A DNA stretch of 64,000 bases from Zasmidium citrigriseum. Lineage: Eukaryota; Ascomycota; Dothideomycetes; Mycosphaerellales; Mycosphaerellaceae. The notes below the pieces were generated by a model. It was not told where the DNA came from. It saw nothing but the letters and a program-made list of their open reading frames with translations, and searched no databases. Where the stretch lies: NCBI GenBank assembly GCA_002786025.1, contig NHNW01000091.1, positions 1 through 64,000 of the forward strand. Reading direction: 5' to 3'. Positions 35,701 through 56,149 of this stretch are shown here, one piece after another. Position numbers and translations under genes: made by a program. Each line of letters starts with the position of its first letter. Position 1 is the first letter of the stretch.

Positions 35701-36263
35701 GACTGTTAGCTAGATTAGAGCTAGTTAGTGCGGCGGGTATTAGCGCTCTACCTCTAGAGCGCGCTATAGTATCGGAGTAGGTAGAAGGTAATAGGGTTGT
35801 CGGTAGGTATTCGGTAAAGTCGGTAAGGGTGGAACTATTAATAGAGGAAGAGCTCGAAGAAGTCGGAAGGTTCGAGGTGCTAAAGGCGGTAGTATTATCG
35901 GTGTTATTAAAGTTAAGAGGTTAGCGGAACAGAAGGGGGCTTAAGTACCTATAGCGGTAGCCGGCTTTACGGGCTAAGCCGCTATAGTTATACGCGGTAT
36001 CTTTAGCAAACTATAAATATTTGCGCTTCTAAATCACTCGTACAGATTCCACGTGTTCTAATACCTCGTAACTAGCTAGCTATACTATAACACGTGCTAT
36101 ATATAGCAGTTAATCGGATAGCGGTATATCGAGAGCTAGTATCGTAAATCCGGAAGCGAAGGGGTCTAGTTCGGTTTTTAAGAGAGATAGGCGATAGCAG
36201 TATCGTCCTCGTATATATACGTAGCTTATAGAGTCGCATAGGTAGCCGGGTAGGGCGGTTAGG
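32717..36263 (-). pseudogene. Module G, older copy, RIP-degraded
   Basis: This is an inverted counterpart of 50656-54193, with the same order of segments and many additional TAG codons. The end of the frame, with its acidic LLEGEELSILEGNF-type tail, lies near 32770-32830. It adds no recognisable domain, but it shows that module G belonged to the element before the younger insertion. Confidence 0.75.
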
Positions 36264-36290
36264 CGTTCGTACCCTAGCGGGGTACGATCG
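36264..36290. repeat. Module palindrome, older copy (between F and G)
   Basis: 27 nt: CGTTCGTACCC, centre TAGCG, GGGTACGATCG. Counterpart of 50629-50655. Confidence 0.85.
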
Positions 36291-37379
36291 TGAAAGTAAT
36301 ATCCGTAGGCCAATTAGTTAACTATAGGCGTTCTAATTTAGCCCGAAATAGGTACCCTATTAAGCTCCTTCCCTACAATCCTCTAAACACCCCTAGCATA
36401 TACCTATTTATAGCGGGAGTACCTACGGGGTTAAGTAGGGATAAGAACTTAGATCTAATTATCTAGAATAGCGCTAAACTCCGGGCGTTGTCGTCGGAGA
36501 GGAGGATCTAAGCTAGCTACTGTTCGGAACGTAGCCCTCTGTCTATAGTCTAGTGCCTAAAATAGCACTAATTACGGGTCGAGTGAATTAATAAGGAGTA
36601 TCTTACGCCTATCGATTTATCGAATACGCGAGCCAGTTCGGACGATAAAGGGTAGGCTAGTAGCGGTTCTAGGAGTTCGTCTAGTATAGTCGTTAGTATA
36701 TCCGAGCCGATAGATTAAGCGGCGAGAATCTCGAGATCTAGGGGTAGGGTGTCTTCGCCGATCCTCTAGCTCCTATTATAGATCTACTATCTAACGCCTC
36801 TATATATTACCTATAGTAGCATACTTAGTAAGTATCGTCTCCTATAGCTCGATCTCTTCTTATAGTAGCTATAGTTCGGCGTCGATCTTATCGGTGTTAA
36901 AGTATAGGTGTCTATTATTATCGCGCTAATCCCTAGCGCCTCTCTATATAAGCCGGATAATAGGCGTTCGAGGACGACGCCGGGCGAGGCGTAGTTCAAC
37001 TACATCGATTCGGTATCGTTCTCTAAAGTCCGTAGGAATCGGTTAGGCTAACTACTAGGTAGCTTCTTCTTCCCGAGCTTGAATATAGCGTAGCTAAGTC
37101 CGGTTACGTTCTAAGTATTTAATTAGATCCTCAATTTCGCGTACTCGCTGCCGGCGAGTTTCCTACACTAAAAGAGAGGTAGACGGTAACCGGAGGATAT
37201 AGTTTCGTTCTATCTAGAGCTCTAGAGATTTAGTCTCGATAACTAATATTAATTTCCCGAATACGGCTATAGCGAAAGGTATAGTCTATATCGTTTAGAT
37301 ATAAGTAGCGCGTATATAGAGAGAACACGCCTTCTAGCCGAGCGGGGTTATTATAGATCGTCTAGGGATTTATTAATTG
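36291..37379 (-). pseudogene. Module F, older copy, RIP-degraded
   Basis: Inverted counterpart of 49541-50628. The C-terminal SRR-LIYRLG motif region is at about 36.68-36.73 kb and the N-terminal ERNYILRLP region near 37.19 kb. TAG codons interrupt it. Confidence 0.75.
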
Positions 37380-37407
37380 CGTTCGCACCCCGGTAGGGTA
37401 TAAATCG
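37380..37407. repeat. Module palindrome, older copy (between E and F)
   Basis: 28 nt: CGTTCGCACCC, centre CGGTA, degraded right arm GGGTATAAATCG. Counterpart of 49514-49540. Confidence 0.8.
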
Positions 37408-37587
37408 TAGAAGATACTAAGCTACTCTAGCGACATAGCGCTATTACGGAAGTTGTATTTAGGAATCGATAGTATACTTCGAAGGATCCCCGACAAAGGT
37501 AGGGAACTTGTCTCGTCTAGGTAGGGAACCGATAAAGCTAGACTAGGGTAGAAAGGGGGGGGATATAATATAATCTACCCGTATTAC

Positions 37588-37591
37588 ATAG
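37588..37591. repeat. Target-site duplication, left copy (ATAG)
   Basis: ATAG directly before the 5' LTR is repeated directly after the 3' LTR (54712-54715). The uninterrupted sequence near 49330-49340 of the younger element has it once, which supports a 4-bp duplication on insertion. Confidence 0.75.
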
Positions 37592-37949
37592 TATAGGCTA
37601 GCTAGCTAGCTTCTGCGGCAAATGCCGAGGCTACGAGCGCCTACCTTTAACCTCCGAGCGGCGAGTACCTTTATTATTATTACGACACCTGCTTTATATA
37701 CATACGACTAGCTTCTTGTACAATATGCGACATAGATAGATATAGTAAAATCCTATACACTAAACTTCTTCTCTTCTTTTATAACTTCCTTCGGAAGCAC
37801 CTCTGTACATACGAATACCTTCGTACATCCGAACCTACCAATGGAGCTGTGTTACACCCTCTATCAAGATCTATCGCCTATGACCCTTCCTTAGCTCTAT
37901 TACCTACTTAGCGACTATAGGTGGGTTGGTCCATAGGCGCTAGGTTATA
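37592..37949 (+). repeat. 5' LTR of the giant element
   Basis: 358 bp, beginning TATAGG and ending GTTATA (TG...CA after RIP). It matches 54354-54711 in length; the differences visible are C/T and G/A only, mostly at CpA/TpG. Less mutated than the internal modules. Confidence 0.9.
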
Positions 37950-38021
37950 TTTTTAGTAGTTAGTACGAGGGTAGAAGATATACCCGTCTTCTTCCGACTT
38001 CTAACCTTCGAGCATTCGATA

Positions 38022-39094
38022 ATGCGCCCTCGCGATACCGCACTCCGACAGATTCGACATAAGCAAGAGCATTTACAAGAGCAACGCTAGCGTAGCTATA
38101 TTAAGGAAAGATATAAGAGCATAAGAAATACGAGACATACGACATTCGGTATATAGGAGCTTCGGCACGAACAACCTAGTAGCATAGAACAATAGATATA
38201 ATAGTTTGGCTATAGAAACAGGCTCGAGTCTGTAGTTAGTCAAACGAAATAGGCACACACGGAAAACTAGAGATTATATTATTAGGTGGACGCATCTAAT
38301 AGGCGAAGCTCGAACACGTACTATACGAACACTCGGAACCTCTAGAAATCGGACGGGTAGCGCTATGCTTTACTACTTGGCGGAAGTAGGCATAGCGGAA
38401 ACCCTAATAACTACTTCTCGCAAACACGATAACTGCCCTCGGTAATACGCTCTCCTTTGTTAAAATTGGATGCTATCTATAGATAGCTAAGATTACGCCT
38501 CGACTCAACTGCCTTCGGGCTATTGAGATTCGAAACCGCTATAAGATAAGGCATTTGGAAGAGTCGTTCTAGGCAGGAGCTTAGAAAGGGGTAACTACTC
38601 GCAAGGCTGCGATCCCTAGGACAAGGTTTGTTAGTCTAGATCGAAGCCGCTAACTAAATCGTAGCTGCCTAACATAGTAATAGCTATTAGGCCTGTGCGC
38701 ATGAGAAGGAAGCATTAATATGCAACCTTACCTCCAGACCTCGCTAAGAAGAACTACTATTAATTAGCACCTTATACTTCTAGCAATAGCGAACTCGTTA
38801 CTAGTACTACACCCGTACTATAACTAGCACTGCCCTTGTATATTACTTTATATTACACTTCTCTGTATCCTTGCTTTCTATTACACACTTGCTGTTCAAA
38901 CTGTTTGATTTATATCCGTCTATCTATATCTACGCCCTGTTGCTATACTCGGCTTAAGGCTATGTCTTGTTGTTACCCAAGTTATAAAACCCTTACAAAA
39001 ACATTGCTTCTACCTGTTTTGATTGATAAGGACGCTTTCGTGTCCAATTTGTATCCCTCGTGTTACTGAACAAGTAACAAATCCTTATATCTTG
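38022..39094 (+). pseudogene. Module A, small unrecognised frame
   Basis: An ATG at 38022 opens a basic, Gln/Arg-rich frame (start MRPRDTALRQIRHKQEHLQE) interrupted by TAG codons. It lies between the 5' LTR and the first palindrome, where an untranslated leader would be expected, so it may be only partly coding. No family recognised. A tRNA primer site after the LTR could not be identified with confidence. Confidence 0.4.
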
Positions 39095-39121
39095 CTTTTA
39101 TACCCCGCCGGGGTGCGAACG
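39095..39121. repeat. Module palindrome 1 (after A)
   Basis: 27 nt: left arm degraded to CTTTTATACCC, centre CGCCG, right arm GGGTGCGAACG. Confidence 0.82.
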
Positions 39122-42100
39122 ATCTACTACTAGGATTCCGACTACTAGCCCCTAGGACTAGCTGCCTTCTGCTATATACTTCACTAGAGGAAGTAGTTTA
39201 AGCAGATCCAAGTTACCTCTTATAAGCAGCTCGCCGCTATAAGAGTCTAGGTTAGGAGAAGAGTCTCTAATCGATTAACCTTTAAGATAGGAAGATCCTA
39301 ACGCTAACCCCGAGTTCCGTAACCTACTAGTAGACCTTAGTCCTTCTAAGCTAAAGGTATCTACTGCCGATAGATCTTCTAGCTCTAAAGAGGTTGAGAC
39401 TCCTACCTCGGAATAGTTACTAACTAGAGCAAGTGCAAGCACTACTACTAGAGTCCCTACTCTACGCCCTCTACTTCTTAACTACGGAAGGTCTTATCGT
39501 TCCTAAATAGCTACTCTAGTTACTAGTACTAACGCTAGCAATAGTAATAGCGGAGGGAGCGGCTAGGCTACCGGGCCTTCTACTAGTACTACCTAGTAGG
39601 CCGATCCTTAGGCTATTATCTAGCAACTAGCTTTAGTTCTTCCTAACTTGCGGCCCAAAATGCCTATGCTAGGCTCAAGTAAGAATCCTCTCTTCGATAG
39701 GAAGAATGTCTCTGCCTTTATCGATCGCTTCGACAACTTAATTACCGAGTACAACCCTAACTTAACTAATGTTGAGAAGTTGTCTCGCTTCCGACTAAAT
39801 ACCGACCTACTAACTCGCCTACGTGTTACTCGAGTTCCAGGTTACGAGGAAGGGGACTATAAGAAGTTCCGTATCGAGGTTGCTCGTGAATTTGCCTAGA
39901 CCGATGCCTTTATACTCCTCGGAACACGTTAGTACCTAGAACAGCTTGCCGGTACTAGTCGTTCTATAGGGGATAACTTATCTAGCTACTGCCGCTAGTT
40001 TATTACCGTAAGTAAGAAGATTAAGAAGGCGGATATAGAGGACAATTCTCGCACTCGACTGTTCCTCTAAGGACTCCCCGATTAATTATAGCGAAAGCTA
40101 TATTAGAAGTTCAACCTATATCCCTTACGCGAGTACAGCTTCCGGGAATTCGGCAAGATCTTCGACGAAGCCGTACGCCTAATCGAAGGGAATGAAGGGT
40201 ATAACCTTACCTAAAAGGAGACGACTATGTAAATAAAGACCCTATAGAAGTCTATCGAAGACAGACAACCTATGCTAGATGTTAACTTGTCTTACATTTC
40301 GAATGTTACTCCGGCTTCTTATAATACTAAGATTAGCTTACTTACCGATCGGCTCCACCGTATAGAAATCGCTATAATGCAACGCTAGTACCTAAGTGGA
40401 GTAATGCTACTTAACTCTCAAGCTACTAATTAGATAAGGAATATCTCCGGTAGGTATAATGCGGGTGTTTTCGCTATGTAGTAAAGGAAAGCCCCCCTAA
40501 TAGGACCTACTATAGCCGACAAGTGCTAGAACTGCGGTGAGCCTAGTTACACTAGCGCTACCTACGAGATGTTTAAGATGTTCCTTAATACTAGTTACTA
40601 CTACCTGTTAGATAACAAGTAGTACTTAGGACCTAAGGGCAGTTATAACCCGAAGTCTATAATATAGCGATGGGACAGAACCAAGCCAAAGCTATATAGC
40701 ATGCTACTAGCTATTCGAATGGAATAGCCCACCGAGAAGATTACCTTTGCGGGAACTAATACTAATAAGTTTCTAGCTAAATGGAGAAGTAATAATAGCT
40801 CCATTACTAGGAACTCTACTTTAACTCCTATAGCGCCACCTACGTTATCGTCGGCTAAGGTCTACTTCGCCGAGGTTAGCGAATCTAAGGAACTATATAA
40901 TCCTGCCTTCTAGTGTGTACAACGCTCTAAGATTATCGATAAGGCTACGGATGCCTTCGATTAGTACGAACATAGATCCTTCCATGTTACTCCTAAGTAC
41001 TTACTAGATAGAGAACATTACTCTAATGCTACTACCCGCTTATAGGAGAAGGCGAGCTTAGCTCCGAAGACACGATTTGCACCTACTGGAATTCTCAAGA
41101 ACAAGGAACGCGAGCAATCCTTAGTAGCTAAGACTCGGCAACTTCGTGCTAACAACACTCCTATCGCTAACCTTCCGGAATCCCATAACTAACTTCGCCG
41201 CTCGGATCTTTAGCCTAGGGTTGAGGATATAACTAAGGATTCTCGGATACAAACTTAGACTATAGACTAGAACTATTCCTAGCGTGAAGAATCTATAACA
41301 GACAGGGGTAATAATAAGTTTAAGGATACCGCACCTCTTAACGTACTAGTTACGGCTCGCCGAGGTAAGCCTAAGAGTAAGGCATTTCTATATTACGTCC
41401 GCGCCTATAGCGGGGGAAACGACAAGTTGTTCTAGAGTAAACAGGTAATAAATGCCCCGCTCAATGTTACCGTTAGTAATATAATAACTTACAACGCTAC
41501 CTTCGCGAAGTACTAGTCGTAGAGAATCCTTAACAACTCCGAATTTATAGACGAGCTTAGGAAGTATAGGGAGACACTATAGACTAGCGCTATAGTATAA
41601 GTTGATTCACCTAACTAGCGTGTATCTATAGCCGTTTAACTTCCGTAAGAAGACATAAGATTCTCCGGACCGCCCGAGGCTAGCGAACTATACAAGGATA
41701 GCGCTAAGATTAATCTTTCTAGTGTTACTACTAATTTGGTCTTAGCTCCCAGCCCCTAGGTAATAGCTACGGTTAGCTATATCGAATATATAGTCCGTAC
41801 TTTAATTGATGAAGGGTCTAAGGGCTGCATTATAAGCTACAAACTAGCTTCCTAGCTTGGGCTTCCTATTATAGGTAATATAAACATTAATATAAGCGGT
41901 GCTAGCGGACCTTACTAGTTTAGTAGAGTTACTCGCGCTCTAAAGATTATAGTACACGGCATTACCTTCTTCTAGAATTTCTTGGTCTCGGTTTCCCCCT
42001 CTATACTATTTATTTTAGGACGCCTATAGTATCGAAAGGTTCGACTAACTAGCGTTAACTACGACAATAGCGCGTAGGAAGGAACTATTACCGATCGGCG

Positions 42101-42353
42101 AGGGAATTCCGTTTACTTCACCGGTATCTAGGCTAACATGTCTGGATGCAAACGGACTAATAATATCCTTCGTAGTCCTAGGCTAGCCCTAAAATTGTAG
42201 GGGAATCGATACCTACGCCGGTCTCCCCTATCTTAGTAGGAGCATATACTATCTATTAGGATGGTATTTATAATGAATCTTCGGATTCTTAAGGATCTTA
42301 AGATCCTCTGAAGGGCTCGCGCCCCGAGATTAGCGAAGAACTTGGGTTCTTAA
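39122..42353 (+). pseudogene. Module B: gag and protease region, RIP-degraded
   Basis: A readable gag segment (39648-39899) has the retrotransposon-gag look (FDRKNVSAFIDRFDNLITEY, then a KFRIEVAREFA helix). The zinc knuckle CX2CX4HX4C starts at 40524; Trp has become TAG, and the His and last Cys have become Tyr. A retroviral-type protease stretch (LIDEGSKGCIISYKLAS) lies near 41.80-41.85 kb. The module ends just before palindrome 2, so gag-protease and RT-integrase appear to be separate cistrons or joined by a programmed mechanism. Many TAG codons make it a pseudogene. Confidence 0.78.
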
Positions 42354-42380
42354 CGTTCGCACCCTACTAGGGTGCGAACG
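42354..42380. repeat. Module palindrome 2 (after B), perfect
   Basis: 27 nt with perfect 11-bp arms CGTTCGCACCC / GGGTGCGAACG around TACTA. It is the best-preserved copy and defines the consensus. Confidence 0.9.
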
Positions 42381-45300
42381 CGAGAATCAACTACTACGTT
42401 CCTAGATTAGATTCTCTACCTTCTAGCTCTTTAGTATCCGCGTTCGCGGTATTTGAAAGAGGGAGGGAAGTTGAAAATTCTTACCCCAACGTTACTGCCG
42501 CCGCTAAATTACTACCTAACATCGCTAAAGCTAGATTTCTCTACATTAAGGATTAGGATAACGATAATGTTAAGGGCATTCTCCTCGTAGCAACTATTAA
42601 TAAAGCGGCTCGAAGGTTAAGGAGACAAGCTTATACTCGCCCGCCTGTTAGCATGACCGCCGACGTATATACTATATATAAACGGAAGGCTAAGAAAGTT
42701 CGCCCTATTAAGGAAGATAGTTCGAGAACCGACGGATCAAAACCTAGCGGATCCCTTACCTAGCGAGACGATTGCCTAGCCTATAAAGCGACACTTCCCC
42801 CGGGAACTAGCAAATTCGATAGGAAATATCTAATTAAGAAATTTTCCAACATCCCTAAAGGAAGCCGGCTAACCTAGGAACGTCTAGATGCTATCGAGAT
42901 CGGCATAGACTTGCTTCCTCTAGAACTAGAAATGATCCACGAGATGCTCTACAATAGAGAAGTAGCTATTACCTATAGCTTCGAGCATCTAGGAAGAATT
43001 CGGGAAGAAGTAATCGGGCTACAATACATCCGGACGATACTATATACGCTATAGCAACATCCGCCTTTCCGTTTAAACCTATTACTTCGGTCTGTGGTTA
43101 AAGGCATGATTCGCGAACGGCTTAAGGCGTAGACGATCGAATCTAGCTACTCGAGCTATCGGAATCCCTACTTCCTAGTTGGGAAAAAGTCCACCGGGCC
43201 GGAGAGAACCTACCGGCTTATTAATGCTACTATTAAGATTAATAAGGTTACTATTCGAGATGCTAACTTACCCCCTAATACGGATAGCTTCTCGGAAGAC
43301 TTTGCTAGGTGCAAGATAGCGAGCTTAATCGACATCTTCTCCGGATATAATTAGGTTACTCTATATGAATCTTATAGAGACATTATAGCTTTCGACACAC
43401 TACTTAGATTGTTCCGACAGACTACTCTTCCGCAAGGAGCCACGAACTCAGTTGCTTAATTCGTAAGAGCTATTACTTAAGTACTTATAGCTTATATATC
43501 CTATCGAGCTCGGCCTTTTCTAGATAATATTAGCGTTAAGGGCCCGAAGACCGATTATAATAGGGAACATATTAAGCCTAGCCTACGGAGATTCGTCGTT
43601 AAACACATTATAGTAATCGATGAAGTCCTTGCGGATCTAGAACGAGCCGGTTATACTGTAGCTAGGAAGAAGCTCCAACTTCTTTATAAGAAGGTTAAGA
43701 TTGTAGGCTATGTAACTAATAAGTTTAGTCGCTACCCTAATGTAGTACGAGTGCGAAAGATACTAGAATAGCCTACCCCTACCTACTAGAAGGATATTAG
43801 GATCTAGATAGGACTAGTTATATACTTCCGGATCTAGGTGCCTAAACTAGCTATTCGAGGAAAGCCGCTCTTCCAACTTCTACGGAAGGATGCGGAGTTT
43901 GTCTAGGAATAGGAGCATTAGGATACTAAGGATACTATTGCCCGTCTCCTCGTCGAAGCCCTAGCTTTAAAGTTAATCGACTACTCTAAGGAAGGAGGGG
44001 GTATCGTGCTTGTAGTTAATGCTTCTAGCGAAGGTTTTGGAGTAGTCCTTATGCAATGCGATCCGAAGAACCCTAAAGTTCGACATCTAGTCCGGTTCGA
44101 ATCTAGCCTTTTTAGTCCTCCTAAGTAGAAGCATAATGCTAGAAAACGCGAATGCCTTGGAGTACTAAAAGTATTACGGAAACTAAAGCTATAGTTATTT
44201 AGTATCTACTTTATCTTAGAGGTAGATGCTAACACGCTAATGCATTAACTTAATAAGGCTTTATCGGATCTGCCGAATGCAGCTGTTACTAGATAGATTG
44301 CTTGAATCCGACTATTTACCTTCGAAGTTCGACATATGCCTAGAACTAAACACTCTGCTCCTAACAGCCTGTCTCGCAAGCTAGCTACGGAACAAGATTA
44401 CGAGGAGCTAGTAGAGGAAGAGGATGTTAAGGCTATGATCGACGACGACTTCTGCCTTACGTACCCGGTGTAGCGAACCAATCCTCCGTAGGAGGATACT
44501 AGTATTCTTAATTACTCGGAGCATTATAATAAGACTTCCTAACAACTAGCCTAGATTATAGCTAAGCGCCGCCGTCCGCGAGGAATAACACGCTAACGAT
44601 ATCGTATACTAGCATTGCAGTTAAGGAAGTTCGTAGTCTAAGGCGGTATCTTGTTCCGACAACCTTATAGGCATGCTCTATTGTAGCGTGTTATAGACCG
44701 ACCTCATATGTAGGACTAAATCTTACATGCCTTCCACGAGAAGAATAGCTACTATAGTACTAACATTATGTTTAACATAATTTAGCGGAGGTACTAGTAG
44801 GAAGGACTATATCTATCTTGCTCCAAGCATTTTAAATCATACGGCCTATGCAACTACCGGAATAGACACCCTCGGCTAGCTAAACTCCGCCTAACTATAT
44901 AGAACTTCGTTAGCGAAAGATGGGCTGCTAATCCTATCTACATTAATGCCTATAGGTGCCTACTCGTAGTAAGGGAGGCACTTAGCGGGTGGATCGAAGT
45001 TAAGTATGTTAACTACTCTTCTAAGAAAGTAATAGCCCGGATTATCGCCGACTAGCTGTATGCCGATGTCTTCTGTCGATATGGAACCCCTCTAGAGATT
45101 ATTCTTAACAATACGAAGTAGCACGCTAGTAAAGTAGCTCGTCTGCTTACTAGCCTAGGTATTAAGAGAGTTCGCATTTCCCTATACAATCCGCATTCGA
45201 ATACCTAAGTTAAAGTTAGACATCGCCTATTGCTAGATGCCCTTACCAAACTTACAAATAGTACTTTAACTAGATGGAGGAAATAGGTTCCTACTATTGC

Positions 45301-46340
45301 CTAGGCGGATCGAACGACAACTAATAGTCGAACTAGCTAATCTCCCTATACTATTATGTTCGGGTATAAAGCGGTGCTACCCATCGAAGTCGAGTACCCT
45401 ACTGCTACTATCCGAGATTAGGGTGTAGTTCGTAACCGCGGAATACTTCTATAGTATCGCGCTAAACAACTTTAGCGAATGGAAGGATTACTTAAGGAAC
45501 TCTAGGCTCGCTAGAAGTAGATAAAGGCTGCTGTAAAGTAGTACTACGATAGTCGCAACAACGTTAGCTTCGAGGAATTTCAGCCTAGCGACACGGTTCT
45601 TATGTATCGTGCCGAAGACAAGTATAATAAATCCGACAAGTTGTCCTTCCGATAGAAAGGACCCTTCCGCATTAGAGAAAGAGACATAACTAGCTTCTCG
45701 AAACTAGAACGGCTGTACTCCTATCTGCTAGAGGAATTGGATAGTACTAAAATAGATAGGACCTTCGCGTACCATCTTCTTAAGAAGGTTGTCTACCTAT
45801 TCCGTACGATAGAAGAGGATATTAACAATCCTACCCCTAATGTCGCTAAAGCTAATTAGCCGCGACTGTTTAAGGCCGAAGATAAAGATGAACCGGAAGA
45901 TGATAATGACCTTAAGGAAGAAGACCTACAGTTTACTAAGCTAGGTATCGCTTATCCGTAGTTAAGCCTCCCGCGGCTAAGCTCTAAAGAAAGGGAAGGG
46001 TACTAGAGGTACGACTAGCTAGATTTTCTTCGAAATTCTTGCTTATTACCCTGTTTGCTACATCGGCCTTATAACTAAGGGCTATGTACTTTTAGAAACC
46101 TATTACTCCCTAGATCGCGCGTAAGCCGAAGTTAACGGGGTACTCTTATACGATGTAGGCTTTCGCTTCCGCGCTAGCTCGTAGTCCTAGTCGCCGTCTT
46201 TATCTTTCTCGATATACTCCTTATAGACAGACGATAGTCTACACGTACACGCCTTTTATTACTATCTACGACGTCTTTATTACATGCCGGATCTCTGCAC
46301 GCTCCTAGGGATCACGATATCGACAATTCCCGCACTTTCA
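42381..46340 (+). pseudogene. Module C: reverse transcriptase, RNase H and integrase
   Basis: In order: an RT palm with the KKSTGPERTYRLINATIK region near 43.2 kb, LIDIFSGYN near 43.33 kb, a TLPQGATNS block near 43.43 kb and the active-site strand at 43517-43528. RNase H is near 44.0-44.4 kb (VVNASSEGFG, later VRHMPRTKHSAPNSLSRKL). A Ty3-type integrase core lies at about 44.7-45.4 kb with RYGTPLEIILNN and LYNPHSNT. The active site reads FLDN here. In the older copy it is FLDD, so a TG-to-TA change has removed the second catalytic Asp. Combined with many TAG codons, it is inactive. By family this copies the element's RNA into cDNA and integrates it. Confidence 0.87.
42454..42470 (+). other. 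Internal polypurine tract
   Basis: TGAAAGAGGGAGGGAAG shares the nine bases GGGAGGGAA with the tract that abuts the 3' LTR (54341-54353). Its place just after palindrome 2 and before RT recalls the central polypurine tracts of some retroelements. Functional use is inferred only. Confidence 0.4.
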
Positions 46341-46367
46341 CGTTTATACCCTAGCGGGGTGCGAACG
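46341..46367. repeat. Module palindrome 3 (after C)
   Basis: 27 nt: CGTTTATACCC, centre TAGCG, GGGTGCGAACG. It is present at the matching place in the older copy (57677-57703). Confidence 0.85.
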
Positions 46368-46710
46368 TCTAACGGTAGGAAACTAGCTATAGTCTCGGCA
46401 ATAGATAGGTACCGGCTATCCGCGAGCTCTTCCGGAATTGCGATTGTAGTAATAAGCAAAGGGGAGGGGCGAGGAATATAAAGTAGTCCCCTAAGGTAGT
46501 TACGAGCCGTAACTTCCGCATTAGGAATAGCGCTAGCTACGTATAACTTCCTGTTACCCTCGCGCCTTTAGCTATTCTTCTACCGCGTAACGACCGACAC
46601 TTTCAAGCGGCAACTTAATCTACGCCTCCGACTATCGGTAAAGATCGCTATTGTACTAGCTATCGCCTCCGAACCCTACGCTATTATAGCTGCCTTACCT
46701 ATTCGCTAAG

Positions 46711-47894
46711 ATGTCGGATCTCGAAGCCGTCAAATTAGTCTTGGAGACCGAGTCTAAGGAGCTCTAGTTAGAGCGTAACTATATCCTTAGCTTGCCTATA
46801 AATAGCGGCCACGAGTAAGAGGCTCGCCGATAGCGTGTCCGCGATATCGAGAACACTATCGAGCACCTTGAGACAGATCGGGATTAGATCCGCTCTACTC
46901 TAATCGGTAAATAGAATAGAATATCGGACATTATAGACGCCTTTGTCCGCGACTACCTCGCCGCTCACCTAGGAGCGACGGTTGTTCCTACTATAGTCAC
47001 CGAGGATTATATGTTTCGAGTAGTAGAACCAAGACTATAGGCCTCCCGTCTATAGTATTAGATCTTCCGCCTTATAGAACAAGGTACTAGAGGATAGCGT
47101 AACGACGATCCGGGCCCTTACTTCAATATTAACGAGATCCGCGCTAATCTAGATCTGCTTTAACGAGATATTGCTCTATAGGAACGCATCCTTAACGAGC
47201 ATACTATTATAGGAAACGCCCGTCTTCGCTAGGATGTCGATCTATAGCGTAAGCTCGAGAGTCGTCGTACTTACCACCCTCCTAGCTACTACGAATCTCG
47301 CCGCTCCATCTATCGTCTAGGCTATCGCAATAACACTACTAGCCGCACTAACGGCACTACCTACGGTCCTTAACTTCCTATTAACACTAACTTTATTATA
47401 AGAAATATCGATAGTATCGACCGACTATTCCTAAACCCTCCAAACTAGCAAGCTGCTTAGATCGACGCCTAAGTTCGCCGACTTAATACGTAAGGAAGGA
47501 ATACCCGCCGTAGTCGTACTAGTCTGGATGGCCTACTTCGGTAAGAGAGGCCCGAGAACAATCGAGTCGCTAAGGACTAGAGTCGTGCTATATAGGCTAA
47601 TCGCCGCCGCCTTAAACGCCTATAAGGATGGCACTATACGATAAGATTGCATCCCGGGAGAGTAGTACTAGGAGAAGTATAAAAGGAATAGAAAAGGGGT
47701 TTTGCTAGGGAGAATTGGACGGAAGAATTAGGAGTTAGCTTGTAGTAATAGCTACTTCTTCTCCGCGAGCCTTCTAGTTTAGAGCTCTCTAGTATAAAAA
47801 CCTTTACCCCTCCTCTCAATCGTTACTCCCGTATCCATTGCCTACGTCTTACACCTATAGGAGAAGTAATGTTAAGAATAGCTAGTTACTTTTA
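46711..47894 (+). pseudogene. Module D, coiled-coil-type protein, first of three paralogues
   Basis: An ATG at 46711 opens MSDLEAVKLVLETESKEL followed by ERNYILSLP. A Glu/Arg-rich helical region follows, then FNINEIRANLDLL (from 47122) and the C-terminal motif ESRRSIYRLG (47293-47322). TAG codons interrupt it. The same blocks recur in modules E and F. There is no enzyme motif, signal peptide or membrane segment. The family is unknown to me; the heptad-like charge pattern suggests a structural or nucleic-acid-packaging role, which is a guess. Confidence 0.65.
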
Positions 47895-47921
47895 CGATCG
47901 CACCCCGCCGGGGTGTAAAAG
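47895..47921. repeat. Module palindrome 4 (D/E)
   Basis: 27 nt: CGATCGCACCC, centre CGCCG, right arm degraded to GGGTGTAAAAG. The older copy has it at 56123-56149. Confidence 0.85.
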
Positions 47922-49513
47922 GTTAGAGCCGCCGCTACCCGGTACCTACGCCGACTCTACGCTATTAGGTAATGCTCGTAGATTGTCGGTGCATCTAAAG
48001 TTGTTACTAGAGTAACTAGGTCCGGAACTAAAGGCTTCTAATAGATTACATATAGTGATTTCCTAATTAGGCCTAGCGGCTGTCGCTAGCATAACTTCCC
48101 GCCGCTACTCGAATATTAACCTTCTTCGCGTCGCACTACGACTCGCACCTTTTGCGACGGATCCAAGCCTTCTTCCTCTAAAGCCGCGAGAGCTTTATTA
48201 AAAGCTAAACGCCTATCGCACGAGGATCGCCTCCGCCGACACCGCTAACATAAGCGATATCCGCGCTCTAAAAGAAGTCGTCCGCCTCGAGCATGCTAAG
48301 CTCCGTTAAGAGATAGAGTATCTATGCTCGAATGCCTATACTAGCCGCGGAAATCTTGCCTATATAGAAGCTACCTCGCGCCGTATCGGCGACATTTCTC
48401 GCACCCGCCGCCTACTAATAGATGTAGATAAGGAGCTAGACGATCTACTACACGATAAGACTTAAGATAGCAATCGGATAATAAACGAGTAGTAGTAGAC
48501 CTTCCTTAGTCGCTAGCATCGCCTACCCTCTACTACCGAGAGATAGTAGTATTACGCCGATACGGTCGAGCCCCGCATCCTTACTACTCGGCTAAATATC
48601 TCCGTCGTCCGCCTACTACGTATGGGCGCATAGAACTAGAGAAACGGGGAGCCTAACCCCGCCTTTAACCTTAACGAGATCTACCTATCCCTTTAAGCGG
48701 GTTATTCTAATACTTATCTGCAAGCCTGCATTATTAATAAGTATCGCGCGAATAGCGACTTCTAAGGACGCTAGACTCTTAGTATGTAGCAAGATCTGGA
48801 ACGCCGCCGCACCTAGCCTAATCCTCGCGCCTTCGATAGTCGTCGGTCTATCTTCCGTCTCGGCACCCCACCTCTAGTAATACCGGCGCCTAGCACCTAC
48901 TCGTTCCCTAGCTAGCTATAGACGGATGTTCGCTAGAGGGTCCGCTACGGTATAGTTATAAACTAGACGGAGTATAAAGCCGATCTCTCTCGCCGCTATA
49001 CTAATCTAAAGCGTCGTCGTAAGGAGGTCGATCGCATAATAGGCCTATAGCTAGTCTAGCGAGTTCGCATCCGCTAATATAATAAAGGTAACATCGAATT
49101 GCTACCGTAAGGTTATCCGCCTAGCCCGGGATAGGTACTCTAACGCCTTAAGCTTAGGGAGGTATGGATGACTTTAGGCCTAGGAATTAAGGATAGAGGC
49201 ATAGATAGGACATATAGTAGCGGCTGTTTGCTACTTATATCGAGCCTCTAACTTCAAGTCCACTAGTAAAATGGCTTACTTCTACCTTCTCCTTCTTTCC
49301 TTTATTATATCTATTTATATTCCCGTTATCTATATAATGCGGGAAGATTATATTGTATCTTCCCCTTTCCACCCTAGTCTTACTTTATTGGTTTCCTATC
49401 CGGATAAGACAAGTTCCCTACCTTTGTCGAGGATCCTCCGAAGTGTGTTATCGATTCTAGAATACTACTTCCGTAATAGTACTATGTTACTAGGGTAGCT
49501 TAGCACCTCCTAT
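47922..49513 (+). pseudogene. Module E, second paralogue
   Basis: An Arg/Glu-rich helical first half (about 48.2-48.5 kb) is followed by AFNLNEIYLSL (from 48661) and DSRRSIFRLG (48835-48864), in the same order and spacing as in modules D and F. Its tail is longer and continues to about 49.2 kb, followed by a non-coding end into which the older copy was hit by the younger insertion. TAG codons interrupt it. Confidence 0.62.
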
Positions 49514-49540
49514 AATTCACACCCCTCCGGGGTATAAACG
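49514..49540. repeat. Module palindrome 5 (E/F)
   Basis: 27 nt, more degraded: AATTCACACCC, centre CTCCG, GGGTATAAACG. Confidence 0.78.
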
Positions 49541-50628
49541 TAACAAACGAATCCCTAGACGATCTACGATAACCCCGCTCGGCTAGAAGGCATGTTCTCT
49601 CGGTATACGCGCTACTTATATCTAAACGATATAGATTGTATCCTTCGCTATAGCCGCATTCGGGAAATTAATATTAGTTATTAAGACTAAATCTCTAGAG
49701 CTCTAGATAGAACGAAACTATATCCTCCGGTTGCCGTCTACCCCTCTCTCTATGTAGGAAACTCGTCGACAGCGAGTACGCGAAATTAAGGATCTAATCG
49801 AATGCTTGGAACATAATAGGACTTAGCTACGCTATGTTTAAGCTCGGGAAGAAGAAGTCGCTTAGTAGTTAACCTAACCGATTCCTACGGACTTTAGAGA
49901 ACGATACCGAATCGATGTTGTTAAACTACGCCTCGCCCGGCGTCGCCCTCGAACGCCTATTATCTAGCTTATATAGAGAGGCGCTAGAGATTAACGCGAT
50001 AATAATAGACACCTACGCTTTAATACCGGTGAGATCGACGCCGAACTGCAACTACTGCAAGAAGAGATCGAGCTATAGGAGACGATACTTGCTAAATATG
50101 CTACTAAGGGCAATATATAGAGGCGTTAGATAGTAGATCTTTAATAGGAGCTAGAGAATCGGCGAAGATACCCTACCCCTAGATCTCGAGATTCTCGCCG
50201 CTTAATCTATCGGCTCGGACATGCTAACGACTATGCTAGACGAACTCCTAGAACCGCTACTAGCCCAACCTTTATTATTAGAACTAGCTCGCGTATTCGA
50301 CAAATCGATAGGCGTAAGATGCTCCTTATTAATTCCCCCGACCCGTAATTAGTACTGTTTTAGGCACTAGACCACCGATAGAGGGCTACGTTCCGAACAG
50401 TAGCTAGCTTAGATCCTCCTCTCCGACAATAACGCCCGGAGTTTAGCGCTATTCTAGACGATTAGGTCTAAGTCTTGTCCCCGCTTAACCCCGTAGGTAC
50501 TCCCGCTATAAATAGGCATATACTAGAGATGTTCTAAGGATTGTAGGACAGGCTTTTAACAGGGTACCCATTTTTAGCTAAATTAGAGAACCTATAGTTA
50601 ACTAGTTGGCCTCCGGATGTCGCTTTCA
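49541..50628 (+). pseudogene. Module F, third paralogue
   Basis: It starts with an ERNYILRLP block (about 49.70 kb) nearly the same as in module D. It continues with a charged helical stretch, FNTGEIDAELQLL (from 50019) and DSRRLIYRLG (50190-50219). It is the shortest of the three. An untranslated end of about 300 bp follows before the palindrome. RIP-type TAG stops are present. Confidence 0.62.
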
Positions 50629-50655
50629 CGATCGTACCCCGCCGGGGTACGAACG
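50629..50655. repeat. Module palindrome 6 (F/G)
   Basis: 27 nt: CGATCGTACCC, centre CGCCG, GGGTACGAACG. Confidence 0.87.
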
Positions 50656-53600
50656 CCTAACCTCCCTAACTAGCTACCTATACGACTCTATAGGCTACGC
50701 ATATATACGGGGACGATGTTACTGTCGCCTTTCTCGCTTAAGAACTAAACTAGACCCCCTCGCTTCCGGATTCACGATGCTAGCTCTCGATATACCGCCA
50801 TCCGATTAACTACTACATATAGCACGTGTTATAGTATAGCTAGCTAGTTACGAGGTATTAGAACACGTGGAACCTACACGAGTAATTCAGAAGCGCAAAT
50901 ATTCACAGTTTGCTAAAGATGCCGCGTGTAACTATAGCGGCTTAGCCCGTAAAGCCGGCTGCCGCTATAGGTACTTAAGCCCCCTTCTGTTCCGCTAACC
51001 TCTTAACTTTAATAACACCGACAACACTACCGCCTTTAGCACCTCGAACCTTCCGACTTCTTCGAGCTCTTCCTCTATTAATAGTTCCACTCTTACCGAC
51101 TTTACCGAATACCTACCGACAACCCTATTACCTTCTACCTACTCCGATACTATAGCGCGCTCTAGAGGCAGAGCGCTAATGCCCGCTGCACTAACTAGCT
51201 CTAATCTAGCTAATAGTCTCGTGAAGCTAGGAGAGCTTAAGGTGTCGCAACTCCTCGGGTCTATAGACTATATTAGAGACTTCCGCGACCGCTAATTCCC
51301 CTTAGTTACCGACGACTCCCTAAGCGTGCTTAACAAGAACTTGGATTAGCTTAGCGACTTCCTTAAGACTCTAAGCGACGAGAACAAGACCAACTTTACT
51401 AACTTTATCTACGCATATACTAACTACTTTATCGAGGGGCGGTCTGTCGGTATACTAGAAATAGTAGACCGTGTTAAGAAAGCTGCTAATGTAGCGCCTA
51501 ATCGTCGTAAGTATAAGGCACTAGACAAAGCATTAACATAGGGAGAAAAGGCTCGTAATCGGTATATAGCATTAAGGAAGGCTATAGCTTCCTAGCTATC
51601 TCTACCCCTTAAGCGTTACTTTATATAGTTCTTCCTCGACATTAGCGTACCGCCTTAGCGATAGAAGGAATTTACTACCTTCATCCTTAGTTATAAGGAT
51701 TGGAAGGTAGTCGCTCCTCGCATTAGTAAGGCCTTTGTTTAGAGACTTATAGATCGTAAAGGCAAGGGTAGCCTAAGCAACAACTATCGGGTCGAGTAGA
51801 CTAATCTGGATGCTATCGATAATAGCAAGAAGAAGCATCTTATTAATACTATCGATCTCAACTTAGCGGAAGTGCAAGACTAGCTAACGAAGAATAACCT
51901 CGGACTGTACTCGGAAGATTAGTTCCTTCATCTAGTCGATCCTCGTGTCCGGGAAGAGTCTTAGACACCCGTACCTAATGCTAGCTCCTCAAATTAGAGC
52001 AAGTAGCGAGGACCTCCTCCTACTAGCGGCCGTCCTCGAACTAATACTAACCCTACTCCTCCTTCGATTTAAGAGAAGCCCGCTCTATCTTAACAAGGTC
52101 CTACTAGAAATCTACGCCCTCGTACGAAGCTACCGCCTTTAAACTTAGGATAGGGTTAGAACCCTCCTCGACCTAGTTACTAGCGCTCTGCATCTAATGC
52201 CTTGCCTAACCGTCCGAAGGGCAACCCTACTTCTAGCTAAGTTACGCCTACGTAACAATCGCCTGCCCCCCCTCGCTCTAGTAGCTACAGCCGAACTAAC
52301 TCTAGCCTTCCTCGTACTAGATTAGGAAACCTCCCCCGATCTAGCTCTAGTAACTTCTCTCGTCCTACCTCTAGCACCTTCGGTAACTCCCCTACGGCAT
52401 CCAATTATAGCGGCACATTATTGCCTAACAATAAGAAGTCTTAGATCTATAACAAGTGCCTAGGATTCGTGGATGCTACCCTAATCGCTTAGATTGATTA
52501 TACTAATAAGAACAAGCCGAAGTTTACTAATAATTAAGTCCGGTAGTATCTTAAGGATTATAACGAGAACGGCAAGCGCTAATACGCGAGCCCACTCTAC
52601 TATAATTACTTACGACTATTTATAAGTAGAATCCTAGGAATGCTAAACCGACAAGGTAACTACGCTACCTTAACGAGCAAGGTTAGAGCTATAGTTACTA
52701 CTAAAGACAACCTTAACAGGTTCCGCCGCTAGAACCCTAACTAGTTCGATACACTTTACCGCCCTAACGTCCCTTCCAATGCCCTCGGTCCCTATCGCTT
52801 TACGGCCCAAACATACAACATGCCTACAAGCTAGAAGATTCCTTTTCTAAACTTAGCCCTAGCTATTTCGTATGTAGTAGGCGAACTAAGTAAGGACAAC
52901 TAGGAGAGGAACGGCAACCTTACCTTAAAAGGCCTCTTTAACTAGTAGGAGAGTCCCTTCTACGCTAAGAACCCTAGAAACAATCTAGCCTTAGCTAGGA
53001 ACACTATCTACGATGTTGCTATAGATAAGGTACGGATGTATCGATAGCACTAGCGCTTAATTCGAGAGAAGCACAACCTAGGATAGGGACGTACTATAGT
53101 TTACGGATTGATTTAGTAGTTAATAAGGACTAACCCTATCTACTACCTCCTCTATATACTACTACGCCCGGACTCTTACCCTACCCTTGTGTTATACTCC
53201 TACTACATTAAGGATTAACACATAGCTAGTAGTACTAAGGAGAGTAACATAGGGGCTTAAGCCTTCCGCTACTTAGACTTTAATATCGAGCGCATACACA
53301 CCCCTAAGGGTGGGCAGAATATAATATAGGGCTCGCTTACTCTTCTAGCCGAAGATGCTAGTAACTATACTATTATTATCCCTAGCATGTATAAGCGTAA
53401 GAAGTAGGATCCCTAGGTAAAGTTACTTAAAGAGCGCCGAGGGCCACAATCTAAAGCTAAGATTAAGACTATTAATAAGAAGATATGGACGCCTAAGGAC
53501 GCTAAGAAGTACGACACTAACTAGAAGCCTGTTCTATACGGCAAACTCGATGTTCGAATTTCTATACCTTCTTTGCTACATAGTACCTAAAAGCAGACTA

Positions 53601-54193
53601 AGGAGCGAATTAACTTATTCCCCTAGCTCGTTAAGGTGGATCCTTAAGGAGAAGCACTTGAGATTCCCGGCAGTAGTAGCTAGACTAATCTAAATGCGTC
53701 TTACCGCGATCTCGTAGCTCTAAAGGCAACACCTTCTAGATTCGCTAACATCTTCGGCAAGATTCCCTTCCGCTTTCCGGCTGCGATTAAGATGGATTCG
53801 ACCTAGCCTATTAGTAATACGTTAATTGCTTAGCGTCGGTAGTCCGATCCGATAGTTATTAATAACTAGTATAAGATGTGCCGTATGTTACAGGAGTACT
53901 ATAACGCTAGACCGAACAACGCTAACTCTAGGTAGTCAATCTAGCTTCGTAAGTATCGTACTGCGGCTACGAATGAATTCCATAAGAAGTAGGCGGTCGT
54001 TTAGGGAATGGAGAAGAAGGCCTTCGGCAATAACTCCTACTTTAACAATAATAGGGACTTTAGCAGGTTGCTAGCTGCTTTCGAGGCGCCTATTCCCGAA
54101 CTCCTAGAAGGCGAGGAGTTGTCTATCTTGGAAGGCAATTTTATTAACGACGACAGTGTAGCTATAGATAAGGACGGGAATATACTAGAGTAA
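50656..54193 (+). pseudogene. Module G, large unrecognised cargo protein
   Basis: One frame is readable from about 50.93 kb to the TAA at 54191-54193 (roughly 1,080 codons) if TAG is ignored. Its layout: a Ser/Thr-rich start (about 51.0-51.15 kb), a mainly helical part (51.2-51.95 kb), a Pro/Ser/Arg-rich linker (51.95-52.42 kb), a second folded-looking part rich in Asn, Tyr and Leu (52.43-53.4 kb), and a basic then acidic tail. The last 60 codons (54008-54193) are intact. I see no polymerase, protease, helicase, transmembrane or envelope motif. The frame is conserved in the older copy. The upstream 270 bp after the palindrome are probably untranslated. Function unknown. Confidence 0.65.
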
Positions 54194-54202
54194 GCTAGTT
54201 AT

Positions 54203-54229
54203 CGTTCGCACCCCGCTAGGGTGTGAACG
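54203..54229. repeat. Module palindrome 7 (after G)
   Basis: 27 nt: CGTTCGCACCC, centre CGCTA, GGGTGTGAACG. It lies 10 nt after the stop codon of module G. Confidence 0.88.
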
Positions 54230-54338: not shown

Positions 54339-54340
54339 TA

Positions 54341-54353
54341 GCAAGGGAGGGAA
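54341..54353 (+). other. 3' polypurine tract
   Basis: GCAAGGGAGGGAA directly abuts the 3' LTR, as expected for the primer of plus-strand DNA synthesis. It fixes the LTR boundary at 54354. Confidence 0.82.
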
Positions 54354-54711
54354 TATAGGCTAGCTAGCTGGCTTCTACGGCAAATGCCGAGGCTACGAGC
54401 GCCTACCTTCAACCTCCGAGCGGCGAGCACCTTTATTATTATTACGACACCTACTTTACACACACACGACTAGCTTCTTGTACAATATGCGACATAGATA
54501 GATATAGTAAAATCCTATACACCAAACTTCTTCTCTTCTTTCATAACTTCCTTCGGAAGCACCTCTATATACACGAATACCTCCGTACATCCGAACCTAC
54601 TAATGGAGCTGTGTTACACCCTCTATTAAGATCTATCGCCTATAACCCTTCCTTAGCTCTATTACCTACTTAGCGACTATAGGTGGGTTGGTCTATAGGC
54701 GCTAGGTTATA
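54354..54711 (+). repeat. 3' LTR of the giant element
   Basis: 358 bp and the same length as the 5' LTR, with only transition differences visible, consistent with identical LTRs at insertion followed by RIP. It keeps more CpA/TpG than the 5' copy. Confidence 0.9.
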
Positions 54712-54715
54712 ATAG
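54712..54715. repeat. Target-site duplication, right copy (ATAG)
   Basis: Partner of 37588-37591. Confidence 0.75.
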
Positions 54716-56122
54716 ATAACGGGAATACAAATAGATATAATAAAGGAAAGGAGGAGAAGGTAGAAGTAAACTATATTACTAGTAGACTCGAAGTTAGAGG
54801 CTCGATATAAGTAGCAAACAGCCGCTACTATATGTCCCGTCTATACCCCTGTCCTTAATTCCTAGGCCTAAAGTTACCTATACCTCCCTAAGCTTTAAGC
54901 GTTAGAGTGCCTATCCCGGGCTAGGCGGATAACCTTATAGTAGTAACTCGGCGTTGCTTTATTATATTAGTAGATATGAACATACTAGACTAGCTATAGG
55001 CCTATTATACGATCGACTTCCTTACGACGACGCTATAGATTAGTATAGCGACGAGAGAGATTAGCTTTATACTCCGTCTAGTTTATAACTATACTACGGC
55101 GGACCCTCTAGCGAATATCCGTCTATGGCTAGCTAGGGAACGAGTAGGTACTAGGCGCCGGTATCGCTAGAGGTAGGGTACCGAGACGGAAGATAGACCG
55201 ACGACTATCGAAGGCGCGAGGATTAGGCTAGGTACGGCGGCGTTCTAGATCTTACTATATACTAAGAGTCTAGCGTCCTTAGAAGTCGCTATTCGCGCGA
55301 TACTTATCAATAATGTAGGCTTGTAGATAAGTATTAGAATAACCCGCTTAAAGGGATAGGTAGATCTCGTTAAGGTTAAAGGCGGGGTTAGGTTCTCCGT
55401 TTCTCTAGTTCTGTACGCCTATGCGTAGTAGGCGGACGACGGAGATATTTAGCCGAGTAGTAAGGATACGGGGCTCGACCGTATCGGCGTAATACTACTA
55501 TCTCTCGGTAGTAGAGGGTAGGCGATACTAGCGACTAAGGAAGGTCTACTACTACTCGTTTATTATCCGATTGCTATCTTAAGTCTTATCGTGTAGTAGA
55601 TCGTCTAGCTCCTTATCTATATCTATTAGTAGGCGGCGGGTGCGAGAAATATCGCCGACACGGCGCGAGGTAGCTTCTATATAGGCAAGATTTCCGCGGC
55701 TAGTATAAGCGTTCGAGTATAGATACTCTATCTCTTAACGGAGCTTAGTATACTCGAGGCGGACGACTTCTTTTAGAGCGCGGATATCGCTTATATTAGC
55801 GGTGTCGGCGTAGGCGTTCCTCGTGCGATAGGCGTTTAGCTTTTAATAAAGCTCTCGCGGCTTTAGAGGAAGAAGGCTTAGATCCGTCGTAAAAGGTACG
55901 AGTCGTAGTACGACGCGGAGAAGGTTAATATTCGAGTAGCGGCGGGAAGTTATACTAGCGACAGCCGCTAGGCCTAATTAGGAAATTACTACATGTGATC
56001 TATTAGAAGCCTTTAGTTCCGGACCTAGTTACTCTAGTAACGACTTTAGATACACCGACAATCTGCGAGTATTACCTAATAGCGTAGAGGCGGCGTAGGT
56101 ACCGGGTAGCGGCGGTTCTAAC
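54712..56122 (-). pseudogene. Module E, older copy, 5' and central part
   Basis: Inverted counterpart of 47922-49333. Its 3' end was separated by the younger insertion and lies at 37408-37591. The frame is broken by TAG codons. Confidence 0.7.
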
Positions 56123-56149
56123 CTTTCACACCCCGGCGGGGTACGATCG
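56123..56149. repeat. Module palindrome, older copy (D/E)
   Basis: 27 nt: CTTTCACACCC, centre CGGCG, GGGTACGATCG. Counterpart of 47895-47921. Confidence 0.83.

What the first reader, a model, noticed from the sequence alone, without database searches (positions are those of the whole stretch)
39095..54229. One 27-nt palindrome after each of seven modules
Near-identical inverted repeats (11-bp arms CGTTCGCACCC / GGGTGCGAACG, 5-nt centre) stand at 39095, 42354, 46341, 47895, 49514, 50629 and 54203, exactly at module borders, plus five more at matching places in the older copy (32690, 36264, 37380, 56123, 57677). I saw none elsewhere in the window. They could be intercistronic RNA hairpins (cleavage, termination, translation restart) of a polycistronic retroelement, or DNA recombination sites through which modules were gained.
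Basis: seen in the sequence. Interest (0 to 1): 0.9.

Follow-up and report, generated by a model that had tools for sequence, protein, structure and literature searches.

The report
Palindromes punctuating a polycistronic fungal retrotransposon
A fungal jumping gene that copies itself through RNA carries six separate genes instead of the usual one or two, and the same mirror-image sequence of about 27 letters stands on both sides of every one of them, apparently as a shared punctuation mark that has changed in step within each family of the element.

Summary
In detail: all 12 palindromes stand at the stated coordinates, and no other place in the window comes close. They belong to a 17.1-kb Ty3/Gypsy-type LTR retrotransposon (copy A, LTRs 37592-37949 and 54354-54711, 4-bp target duplication) inserted into an older inverted copy B. 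Copy A holds six same-strand frames: gag-protease, pol, three related ~300-aa proteins and one of ~1,100 aa. Seven palindromes stand at their borders. The 114 genomic sites I collected from cut lists all fall in this element family. Two further families have palindromes at corresponding places: in one copy per family the eight-base core arms show no transversion while flanks are saturated, and the outer pairs differ on both sides, mostly CG/CG, AG/CT or AT/AT. Family 2 lacks one gene exactly between two palindromes. I conclude that these are selected, sequence-specific intercistronic elements. I favour RNA hairpins that separate cistrons; DNA sites of internal promoters are a close rival, and my data do not decide. 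Every copy read is damaged by RIP. Listings of seven literature searches showed no precedent.

The parts
37592..37949 (+). 5' LTR of copy A, 358 bp
   Evidence: 95.0% identical to 54354-54711; 4-bp target duplication ATAG outside
37950..39094 (+). Leader M1, no conserved reading frame seen
   Evidence: No consistent frame-specific conservation between families F1 and F2
39095..39121 (+). Palindrome S1 (leader / gag-pro)
39570..42311 (+). gag-protease frame; start uncertain (ATG at 39660 in 6 of 7 rows), inferred stop 42309-42311
   Evidence: Frame conservation F1/F2; matches residues 45-873 of P0001; weak Pfam Asp_protease_2, E 0.0032, below its curated cut-off; TGA or TAA in 7 of 7 rows
42354..42380 (+). 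Palindrome S2 (gag-pro / pol), intact arms
   Evidence: RNA fold -20.8 kcal/mol, z -7.5
42500..46018 (+). pol frame (RT, RNase H, integrase region); start uncertain
   Evidence: Pfam RVT_1, RT_RNaseH; 49% identical to P0001; stop codon at 46016 in 7 of 7 rows
46341..46367 (+). Palindrome S3 (pol / M4x)
46668..47625 (+). M4x frame, ~300 aa, paralogue of M5 and M6; absent from family F2
47895..47921 (+). Palindrome S4 (M4x / M5)
48199..49269 (+). M5 frame, ~300 aa, paralogue; boundaries approximate
49514..49540 (+). Palindrome S5 (M5 / M6)
49691..50471 (+). M6 frame, ~270 aa, paralogue; boundaries approximate
50629..50655 (+). Palindrome S6 (M6 / M7)
50843..54193 (+). M7 frame, ~1,100 aa, unknown protein; boundaries approximate
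   Evidence: Protein match to F2 at residues 63-400 and 653-1175 and to F3 at 597-1164; frame test clear mainly in the second half; stop at 54191 in copy A
54203..54229 (+). Palindrome S7 (M7 / 3' LTR side)
54343..54353 (+). Polypurine tract next to the 3' LTR
   Evidence: Same place in copies of F1, F2 and F3
54354..54711 (+). 3' LTR of copy A
32208..37591 (-). Older copy B, 3' part (end of M5 module, M6, M7, LTR), with S7 32690, S6 36264, S5 37380
   Evidence: 91.5% match to A 49330-54711
54712..61090 (-). Older copy B continued (M5, M4x, part of pol), with S4 56123, S3 57677; goes on at C140:73282-76796 beyond a further insertion

Best explanation
Shown: the palindromes are conserved border elements of a polycistronic LTR retrotransposon. 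In family F1 each gene has one on both sides (family F3 has a gene pair with none between), the core letters are kept between families while flanks are saturated, and the outermost pairs differ between families in a mostly matched way. Inferred, most likely mechanism: in the full-length sense RNA each palindrome folds into an 11-13-bp hairpin that a sequence-specific factor (host or element-encoded) binds or cuts, so that leader, gag-pro, pol and each accessory gene can be used as separate messages. The family-specific outer pairs would reflect co-evolution with that factor. Because the same sequence recurs at the borders it also serves as a joint for gain and loss of whole gene modules, probably by template switching during reverse transcription.
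For: Six frames in three phases, 7 palindromes at their borders. gag-pro has an inferred stop 42 nt before S2 and pol restarts beyond it, while the closest relative found, P0001, has gag-pro and pol in one 2105-aa chain, so separate frames need separate expression. Core arms, one copy per family: 0 of 96, 0 of 80 and 0 of 80 transversions between families, against 195/480, 144/400 and 168/400 in ungapped 40-nt flanks. Pair 2: 16 of 18 site classes complementary at purine/pyrimidine level, shuffle mean 10.0, 87 of 20,000 shuffles as good. Covariation score 0.270 against 0.194, 2 of 500 shuffles as high. Intact S2 folds at -20.8 kcal/mol, z -7.5; S7 -18.0, S6 -16.2. In F3 copy C6:25700-41900 the centre is 4 nt at S1 and S2 and 5 nt at S3, S6 and S7 (4-nt sites recur on other contigs), easy for an RNA loop and awkward for a rigid DNA dimer. 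Module loss in F2 exactly between palindromes; modules M4x and M6 share the half-site CGAT at their 3' ends.
Against: No RNA data. Every copy read is RIP-mutated, so several hairpins are weak as they stand (S1 -8.2 and S5 -7.0 kcal/mol, z -1.1 and -1.3). Arm changes favour neither RNA strand: pair 5-23 is U-G in 9 of 18 rows but pair 6-22 is A-C in 11 of 18. Kept core letters mean sequence, not only pairing, is selected, which a DNA site explains equally well. In the F3 copy read, two paralogous genes share one interval with no palindrome between, and six more F3 copies have the same spacing. Pair 1: only 13 of 18 complementary, 1,559 of 20,000 shuffles as good; pair 3: 15 of 18 against a mean of 15.2, no excess. 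Of one search's five measures, pairs with a change on both sides (298 of 500 shuffles as high) and further pair types (90 of 500) show no clear excess. Outside copy A one core transversion was seen (C13, S7 right arm). S7 would not be needed to end the last message.
Confidence: 0.45

Rival explanations
1. DNA dyads that serve as activator or boundary sites of internal promoters: each gene has its own promoter and a dimeric factor binds the palindrome upstream of it.
For: Core is sequence-conserved and palindromic. By my estimates of start positions the palindromes stand some 100 to 550 nt upstream of each coding start, and S7 stands 124 nt before the 3' LTR. Matched change of outer pairs fits one trans-acting dimer per family.
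Against: Half-site spacing changes by one base within F3. S7 has no gene after it. F3's second paralogue has no palindrome of its own. Outer mismatches are common in F1 and F2.
Confidence: 0.33
2. Recombination or module-capture sites are the main function (integron-like cassettes in a retroelement).
For: F2 lacks the M4x module exactly between palindromes. M4x and M6 carry the 3' half-site CGAT (CAAT in copy C90's S4); S1 left and S4 right share CTTT; F2's M6 is bordered by CG half-sites in a mostly AG/CT element. A 76-nt stretch around S4 is 80% alike to the S6 region of copy C13.
Against: No recombinase recognised by Pfam in the X-masked frames. The four F1 copies read in full keep one gene order. 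F3 has F1-like gag, pol and M4x but its own palindromes, so half-sites do not simply travel with modules. Template switching at short repeats would give the same signs without a dedicated function.
Confidence: 0.1
3. Selfish mini-palindromes that inserted into spacers, like REP elements or mitochondrial GC-rich palindromes (both recalled).
For: Short, near-identical, palindromic, at gene borders; very local change at S1 in F3.
Against: The 114 collected genomic sites all fall in this element family, and sites stand at corresponding places in three families with saturated flanks.
Confidence: 0.06
4. RNA packaging, dimerisation or reverse-transcription signals rather than expression signals.
For: Hairpins in the genomic RNA; retroelements use palindromic dimerisation loops (recalled).
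Against: One signal would do; seven placed at gene borders is not expected.
Confidence: 0.06

Closest known systems
Ty3/Gypsy LTR retrotransposons (Metaviridae)
   Same: LTRs, 4-bp target duplication, polypurine tract, gag-protease, RT and RNase H, co-linear with a protein carrying an integrase domain
   Different: gag-pro and pol are separate frames with a spacer; four further genes; a palindrome at the gene borders
Giant Gypsy elements: Ogre (plants) and Burro (planarians), as described in PMC6431247 (passages seen)
   Same: Length over 15 kb, extra coding sequence of unknown function
   Different: By those passages Burro uses one huge polyprotein and Ogre has 1-2 extra frames and LTRs of 1.9-6.5 kb; here LTRs are 358 bp. 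The term 'palindrom' has 0 occurrences in that main text
Bdelloid rotifer LTR elements with ORF3 (PMC5408684, passages seen)
   Same: Accessory frames after pol
   Different: One ORF3, said there to be typically expressed from spliced messages; 'palindrom' has 0 occurrences in that main text
Integron gene cassettes with attC sites (recalled)
   Same: One gene per cassette, imperfect palindrome at each border
   Different: No integrase recognised, one gene order in four F1 copies, eukaryotic retroelement
tRNA punctuation of mitochondrial transcripts (recalled)
   Same: Structured RNA at gene borders of a long transcript
   Different: Simple hairpin, nuclear retroelement, processing not shown here

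Membership tests
Ty3/Gypsy LTR retrotransposon | Paired LTRs and short target duplication | tested here: met
   358-bp LTRs; 4-bp duplication in 5 of 5 copies with both ends fetched and compared (A, C73, C13, C90 of F1; C6 of F3). F2 ends were not settled
Ty3/Gypsy LTR retrotransposon | RT and RNase H, order protease-RT-RNase H-integrase | tested here: met
   RVT_1 9.6e-9, RT_RNaseH 3.4e-10; co-linear with P0001, whose domains include PF17921 (integrase zinc-binding, name recalled). Protease is below cut-off and integrase did not reach Pfam in the RIP-damaged frames
Ty3/Gypsy LTR retrotransposon | Polypurine tract and tRNA primer site | tested here: inconclusive
   Polypurine tract present; sequence after the 5' LTR the same in copies of three families but its tRNA was not identified
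Ty3/Gypsy LTR retrotransposon | gag-pol as one frame or linked by frameshift (usual, not universal; recalled) | tested here: not met
   Separate frames: inferred stop at 42309, palindrome, pol from about 42500
Bacterial-type intrinsic terminator | G+C-rich hairpin followed by a run of T | tested here: not met
   No T run after the seven sites of copy A (read by eye)
Integron cassette array | Site-specific integrase and gene order varying between copies | tested here: inconclusive
   No recombinase in Pfam scans, but the frames are X-masked and RIP-damaged; same site order in four F1 copies read in full, one module fewer in F2
Dispersed mini-palindromes (REP / GC clusters) | Copies unlinked to one host element | tested here: not met
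   114 of 114 sites collected fall in this element family; some of those lists were cut, so not every site was seen

The most novel reading that the evidence does not exclude
A retroelement that replaced the gag-pol polyprotein by a punctuated polycistron: a self-encoded factor (M7, or the M4x/M5/M6 family) reads one family-specific palindrome at the gene borders, and the same sites let whole gene cassettes be gained or lost. Palindrome type follows the fast-diverging 3' genes, not LTR, gag or pol: F3 has F1-like LTR, leader, gag, pol and M4x, yet its own palindromes and its own M7.
Probability: 0.28. Interest if true: 0.9.

Novelty: new variant of a known kind. Interest (0 to 1): 0.72.

Why it matters
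LTR retroelements usually solve the several-proteins-from-one-RNA problem with polyproteins, frameshifts or splicing (recalled). This family seems to have gag-pro and pol as separate frames where its closest relative found has one, and added four genes, with one conserved sequence element at the borders. If the palindromes separate cistrons, it is a new way to run a polycistron in a eukaryotic nucleus and perhaps a useful tool. The family-specific outer pairs also give a direct test for a cognate binding factor.

Tried and rejected
Reassigned stop codon: many in-frame TAG codons are shared by all rows compared, which at first looked like TAG read as sense. Rejected: CAG is the context most fully converted by RIP (120 CAG/CTG left against 1,513 TAG/CTA in copy A), and by eye the sites match both Q and W in P0001, as RIP predicts.

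Rfam: 2 matches at E 0.17 and 0.43, both below gathering scores, taken as chance. Pol III B box: GTTCGCACCC resembles the recalled GTTCGANNCC but lacks the invariant A; rejected from recall only. Doubled carbon-repressor-like CCGGGG sites in the centre (recalled motif): too short to weigh, and the conserved core is larger.

RNA strand test by G-U pairs: undecided (see evidence against). Module M5 looked non-coding by transversion phase, but the substitution-score test gave a frame; both are reported.

Unknown proteins: M7 no homologue; the alignment of its C-terminal half from three families no homologue, no Pfam, and three phage CI repressor chains at E 0.73-0.97 in the PDB, not significant. 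M4x, M5 and M6: no Pfam; their family alignment no PDB match up to E 1. No homologue search was run for M4x, M5, M6 or gag-pro alone. Structure prediction was not run: rows would be few and heavily RIP-damaged. Papers: seven searches answered; passages seen of PMC6431247 and PMC5408684 only, otherwise titles and abstract openings in listings. The host species could not be named.
Full report
THE SITES. With RIP changes discounted they score 0-2 mismatches and nothing else in the window scores better than 4.

THE ELEMENT. The window lies on contig C140 of an unnamed 44.4-Mb genome; a HET-domain gene at 12245-13870 and RIP-type depletion of CA/TG fit a filamentous ascomycete (inference). Copy A is an LTR retrotransposon: 358-bp LTRs at 37592-37949 and 54354-54711, 95.0% identical, a 4-bp duplication ATAG, a polypurine tract, and the same post-LTR sequence in copies of three families. 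It is inserted in inverted orientation into copy B, which is in turn split by another insertion at 61091-73281.

GENES. Stops are everywhere because of RIP, so I found frames by comparing families. For each module I scored substitutions in six frames between copy A and family F2, or, for M4x, against its paralogue M6. Each of the six modules between S1 and S7 has one plus-strand frame that is best in most windows of part of its length; single windows inside gag-pro, M4x, M5 and M7 prefer another frame. Non-coding stretches lie beside the palindromes, except that M7 runs to within 9 nt of S7 in copy A. The leader before S1 shows no frame, and M7 is clear mainly in its second half. The frames fall in three phases, so this is not one polyprotein. 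gag-pro matches residues 45-873 and pol residues 1025-2075 of the metagenomic protein P0001, where they are one chain of 2105 aa. Of the 66 proteins found with pol only P0001 matched gag-pro, so the fused state rests on one relative. gag-pro has an inferred stop at 42309 (TGA in copy A, TAA in the other 6 of 7 rows), 42 nt before S2. The pol stop at 46016 is shared by 7 of 7 rows and corresponds, by eye, to the end of P0001. M4x, M5 and M6 are paralogues (identities of the other six rows to M4x 28-79%, the 79% being its F3 counterpart). M7's C-terminal half is 37% identical between F1 and each of F2 and F3. None of the four has a recognised domain.

COPIES AND FAMILIES. Family F1: the four copies read in full (A, C73, C13, C90) have seven sites each; the S2-S3 interval varies between 3987 and 4104 nt and the others by at most one base. 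One further copy, C62, shows by its listed sites an S6-S4 interval about 970 nt short and no S5; it was not read. Family F2 (about 65% identical in pol; read on C73:446000-463410 and, in part, on C43, C20 and C19) has six sites and lacks the M4x module. Family F3 (read on C6:25700-41900) has no site within 4 mismatches of the F1 palindrome but five with the shared core. Between its S3 and S6 lie M4x and a second paralogue with no palindrome between them (best score there 15 of 18, which 21 places in the copy reach, against 18 of 18 for the five true sites). Seven F3 copies, this one included, show 3087-3089 nt for that interval; the other six were not read. A pol piece finds 33 matches in the genome.

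CONSERVATION. With one copy per family, the eight inner arm positions on each side have 0 of 96, 0 of 80 and 0 of 80 transversions at shared sites; ungapped 40-nt flanks have 195/480, 144/400 and 168/400, and the outer three pairs 11/36, 19/30 and 14/30 (ungapped flanks overstate divergence). Among the other copies one core transversion was seen, in C13's S7. Taking the commonest form at each site, outer ends are CG in 11 of 14 F1 half-sites, AG in 8 of 12 F2 half-sites and AT in 9 of 10 F3 half-sites (my count). A purine/pyrimidine shuffle test over 18 site classes gives 16 matches against 10.0 expected at pair 2 (87 of 20,000 shuffles as good), 13 against 9.0 at pair 1 (1,559 of 20,000) and 15 against 15.2 at pair 3 (no excess). 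The tool's count on one copy per family gives 87.4% standard pairs against 82.3 and covariation 0.270 against 0.194, reached by 1 and 2 of 500 shuffles; cells with a change on both sides 17 against 11.4 (19 of 500); pairs with such a change (298 of 500) and further pair types (90 of 500) show no clear excess. Sites within a family are not independent, so these are indications, not probabilities.

SPACERS. A search among the 400-nt flanks of the seven sites of copy C90, palindromes left out, found nothing shared at E 0.01. Other comparisons did find some likeness: a 76-nt stretch around S4 of copy A is 80% alike to the S6 region of C13, and the 5' spacers of M4x and M5 resemble that of F3's second paralogue.

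MOSAIC. F3 shares LTR, leader, most of gag and pol and the middle of M4x with F1 at roughly 0-7% transversions, but spacers around S2 and S3 are far more diverged (up to 36%); around S1 only the palindrome's neighbourhood differs. Beyond M4x likeness is weak, and M7 is as far from F1 as F2's is (37%). So palindrome type goes with the 3' genes and not with LTR, gag and pol. I read this as selection to match a family-specific factor (inference from three families); homogenisation among sites by template switching is the alternative.

MODULE CHANGE. F2 lacks M4x precisely as a palindrome-bounded unit. In F1 the half-sites at the 3' ends of the paralogous modules M4x and M6 share the form CGAT (CAAT at S4 of C90); S1 left and S4 right share CTTT; in F2 the M6 module is bordered by CG half-sites. 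These are signs of past unit duplication or exchange at palindromes.

WHERE ELSE. From the lists, some of them cut, I collected 114 distinct sites. 107 have a partner at an element spacing. The other 7 lie by an LTR (C110, C114, C123, C124), by pol (C140, C147) or in an element fragment (C23). Sites beyond the cut lists were not seen.

MECHANISM. Shown: border position, sequence-specific conservation, family-wise change, module-bounded loss. Not shown: the level of action. For RNA: strong fold when intact, centre length varying 4-5 nt within F3, and separate frames that need separate expression. For DNA: kept letters, and positions compatible with upstream sites. Against both: F3's gene pair without a palindrome, and one more palindrome than genes in F1. 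I put 0.45 on RNA punctuation and 0.33 on DNA promoter or boundary sites; the checking of this report did not change these odds.

LITERATURE. Seven searches were answered; no listed title or abstract opening describes palindromes between genes of an LTR retrotransposon. Passages of PMC6431247 and PMC5408684 describe giant and ORF-capturing elements; 'palindrom' has 0 occurrences in either main text. Literature outside the held library was not searched.

Noticed in passing
61091-64000, on to C140:73281: Copy B is split by a ~12.2-kb insertion with 110-bp direct repeats, 91% identical, at its ends; probably another LTR-type element with short LTRs.
   Followed up: partly
47895-49514 (M5): M5 is better conserved between F1 and F2 than pol: transversions 6-8% in 5 of 9 windows, 13-14% in 2 and 23-24% in the two end windows, against 9-19% in the 19 coding windows of pol, yet without third-position bias. 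Recent exchange between families or a non-coding constraint could explain it.
   Followed up: partly
46668-50471: Three tandem paralogous genes (motif D/E-SRRSIYRLG and variants) of a protein family without a Pfam or PDB match.
   Followed up: partly
22000-32000: Extremely AT-rich stretch with CA/TG almost absent (15 CAN/NTG triplets left in 10 kb): near-complete RIP.
   Followed up: no
54300-54353: A small hairpin, AGTCTACGGGTTAGACT in copy A, just before the polypurine tract is kept in the F1, F2 and F3 copies compared.
   Followed up: no
palindromes of L020, L021, L026, L027: In the two F2 copies tabulated, 10 of 11 left arms read TTTATA while 0 of 11 right arms do and 10 of 11 right arms keep CG; C19's S2 left arm does not follow. 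Unexplained asymmetry in one direction.
   Followed up: no
12245-13870: HET-domain (heterokaryon incompatibility) gene on the minus strand.
   Followed up: no
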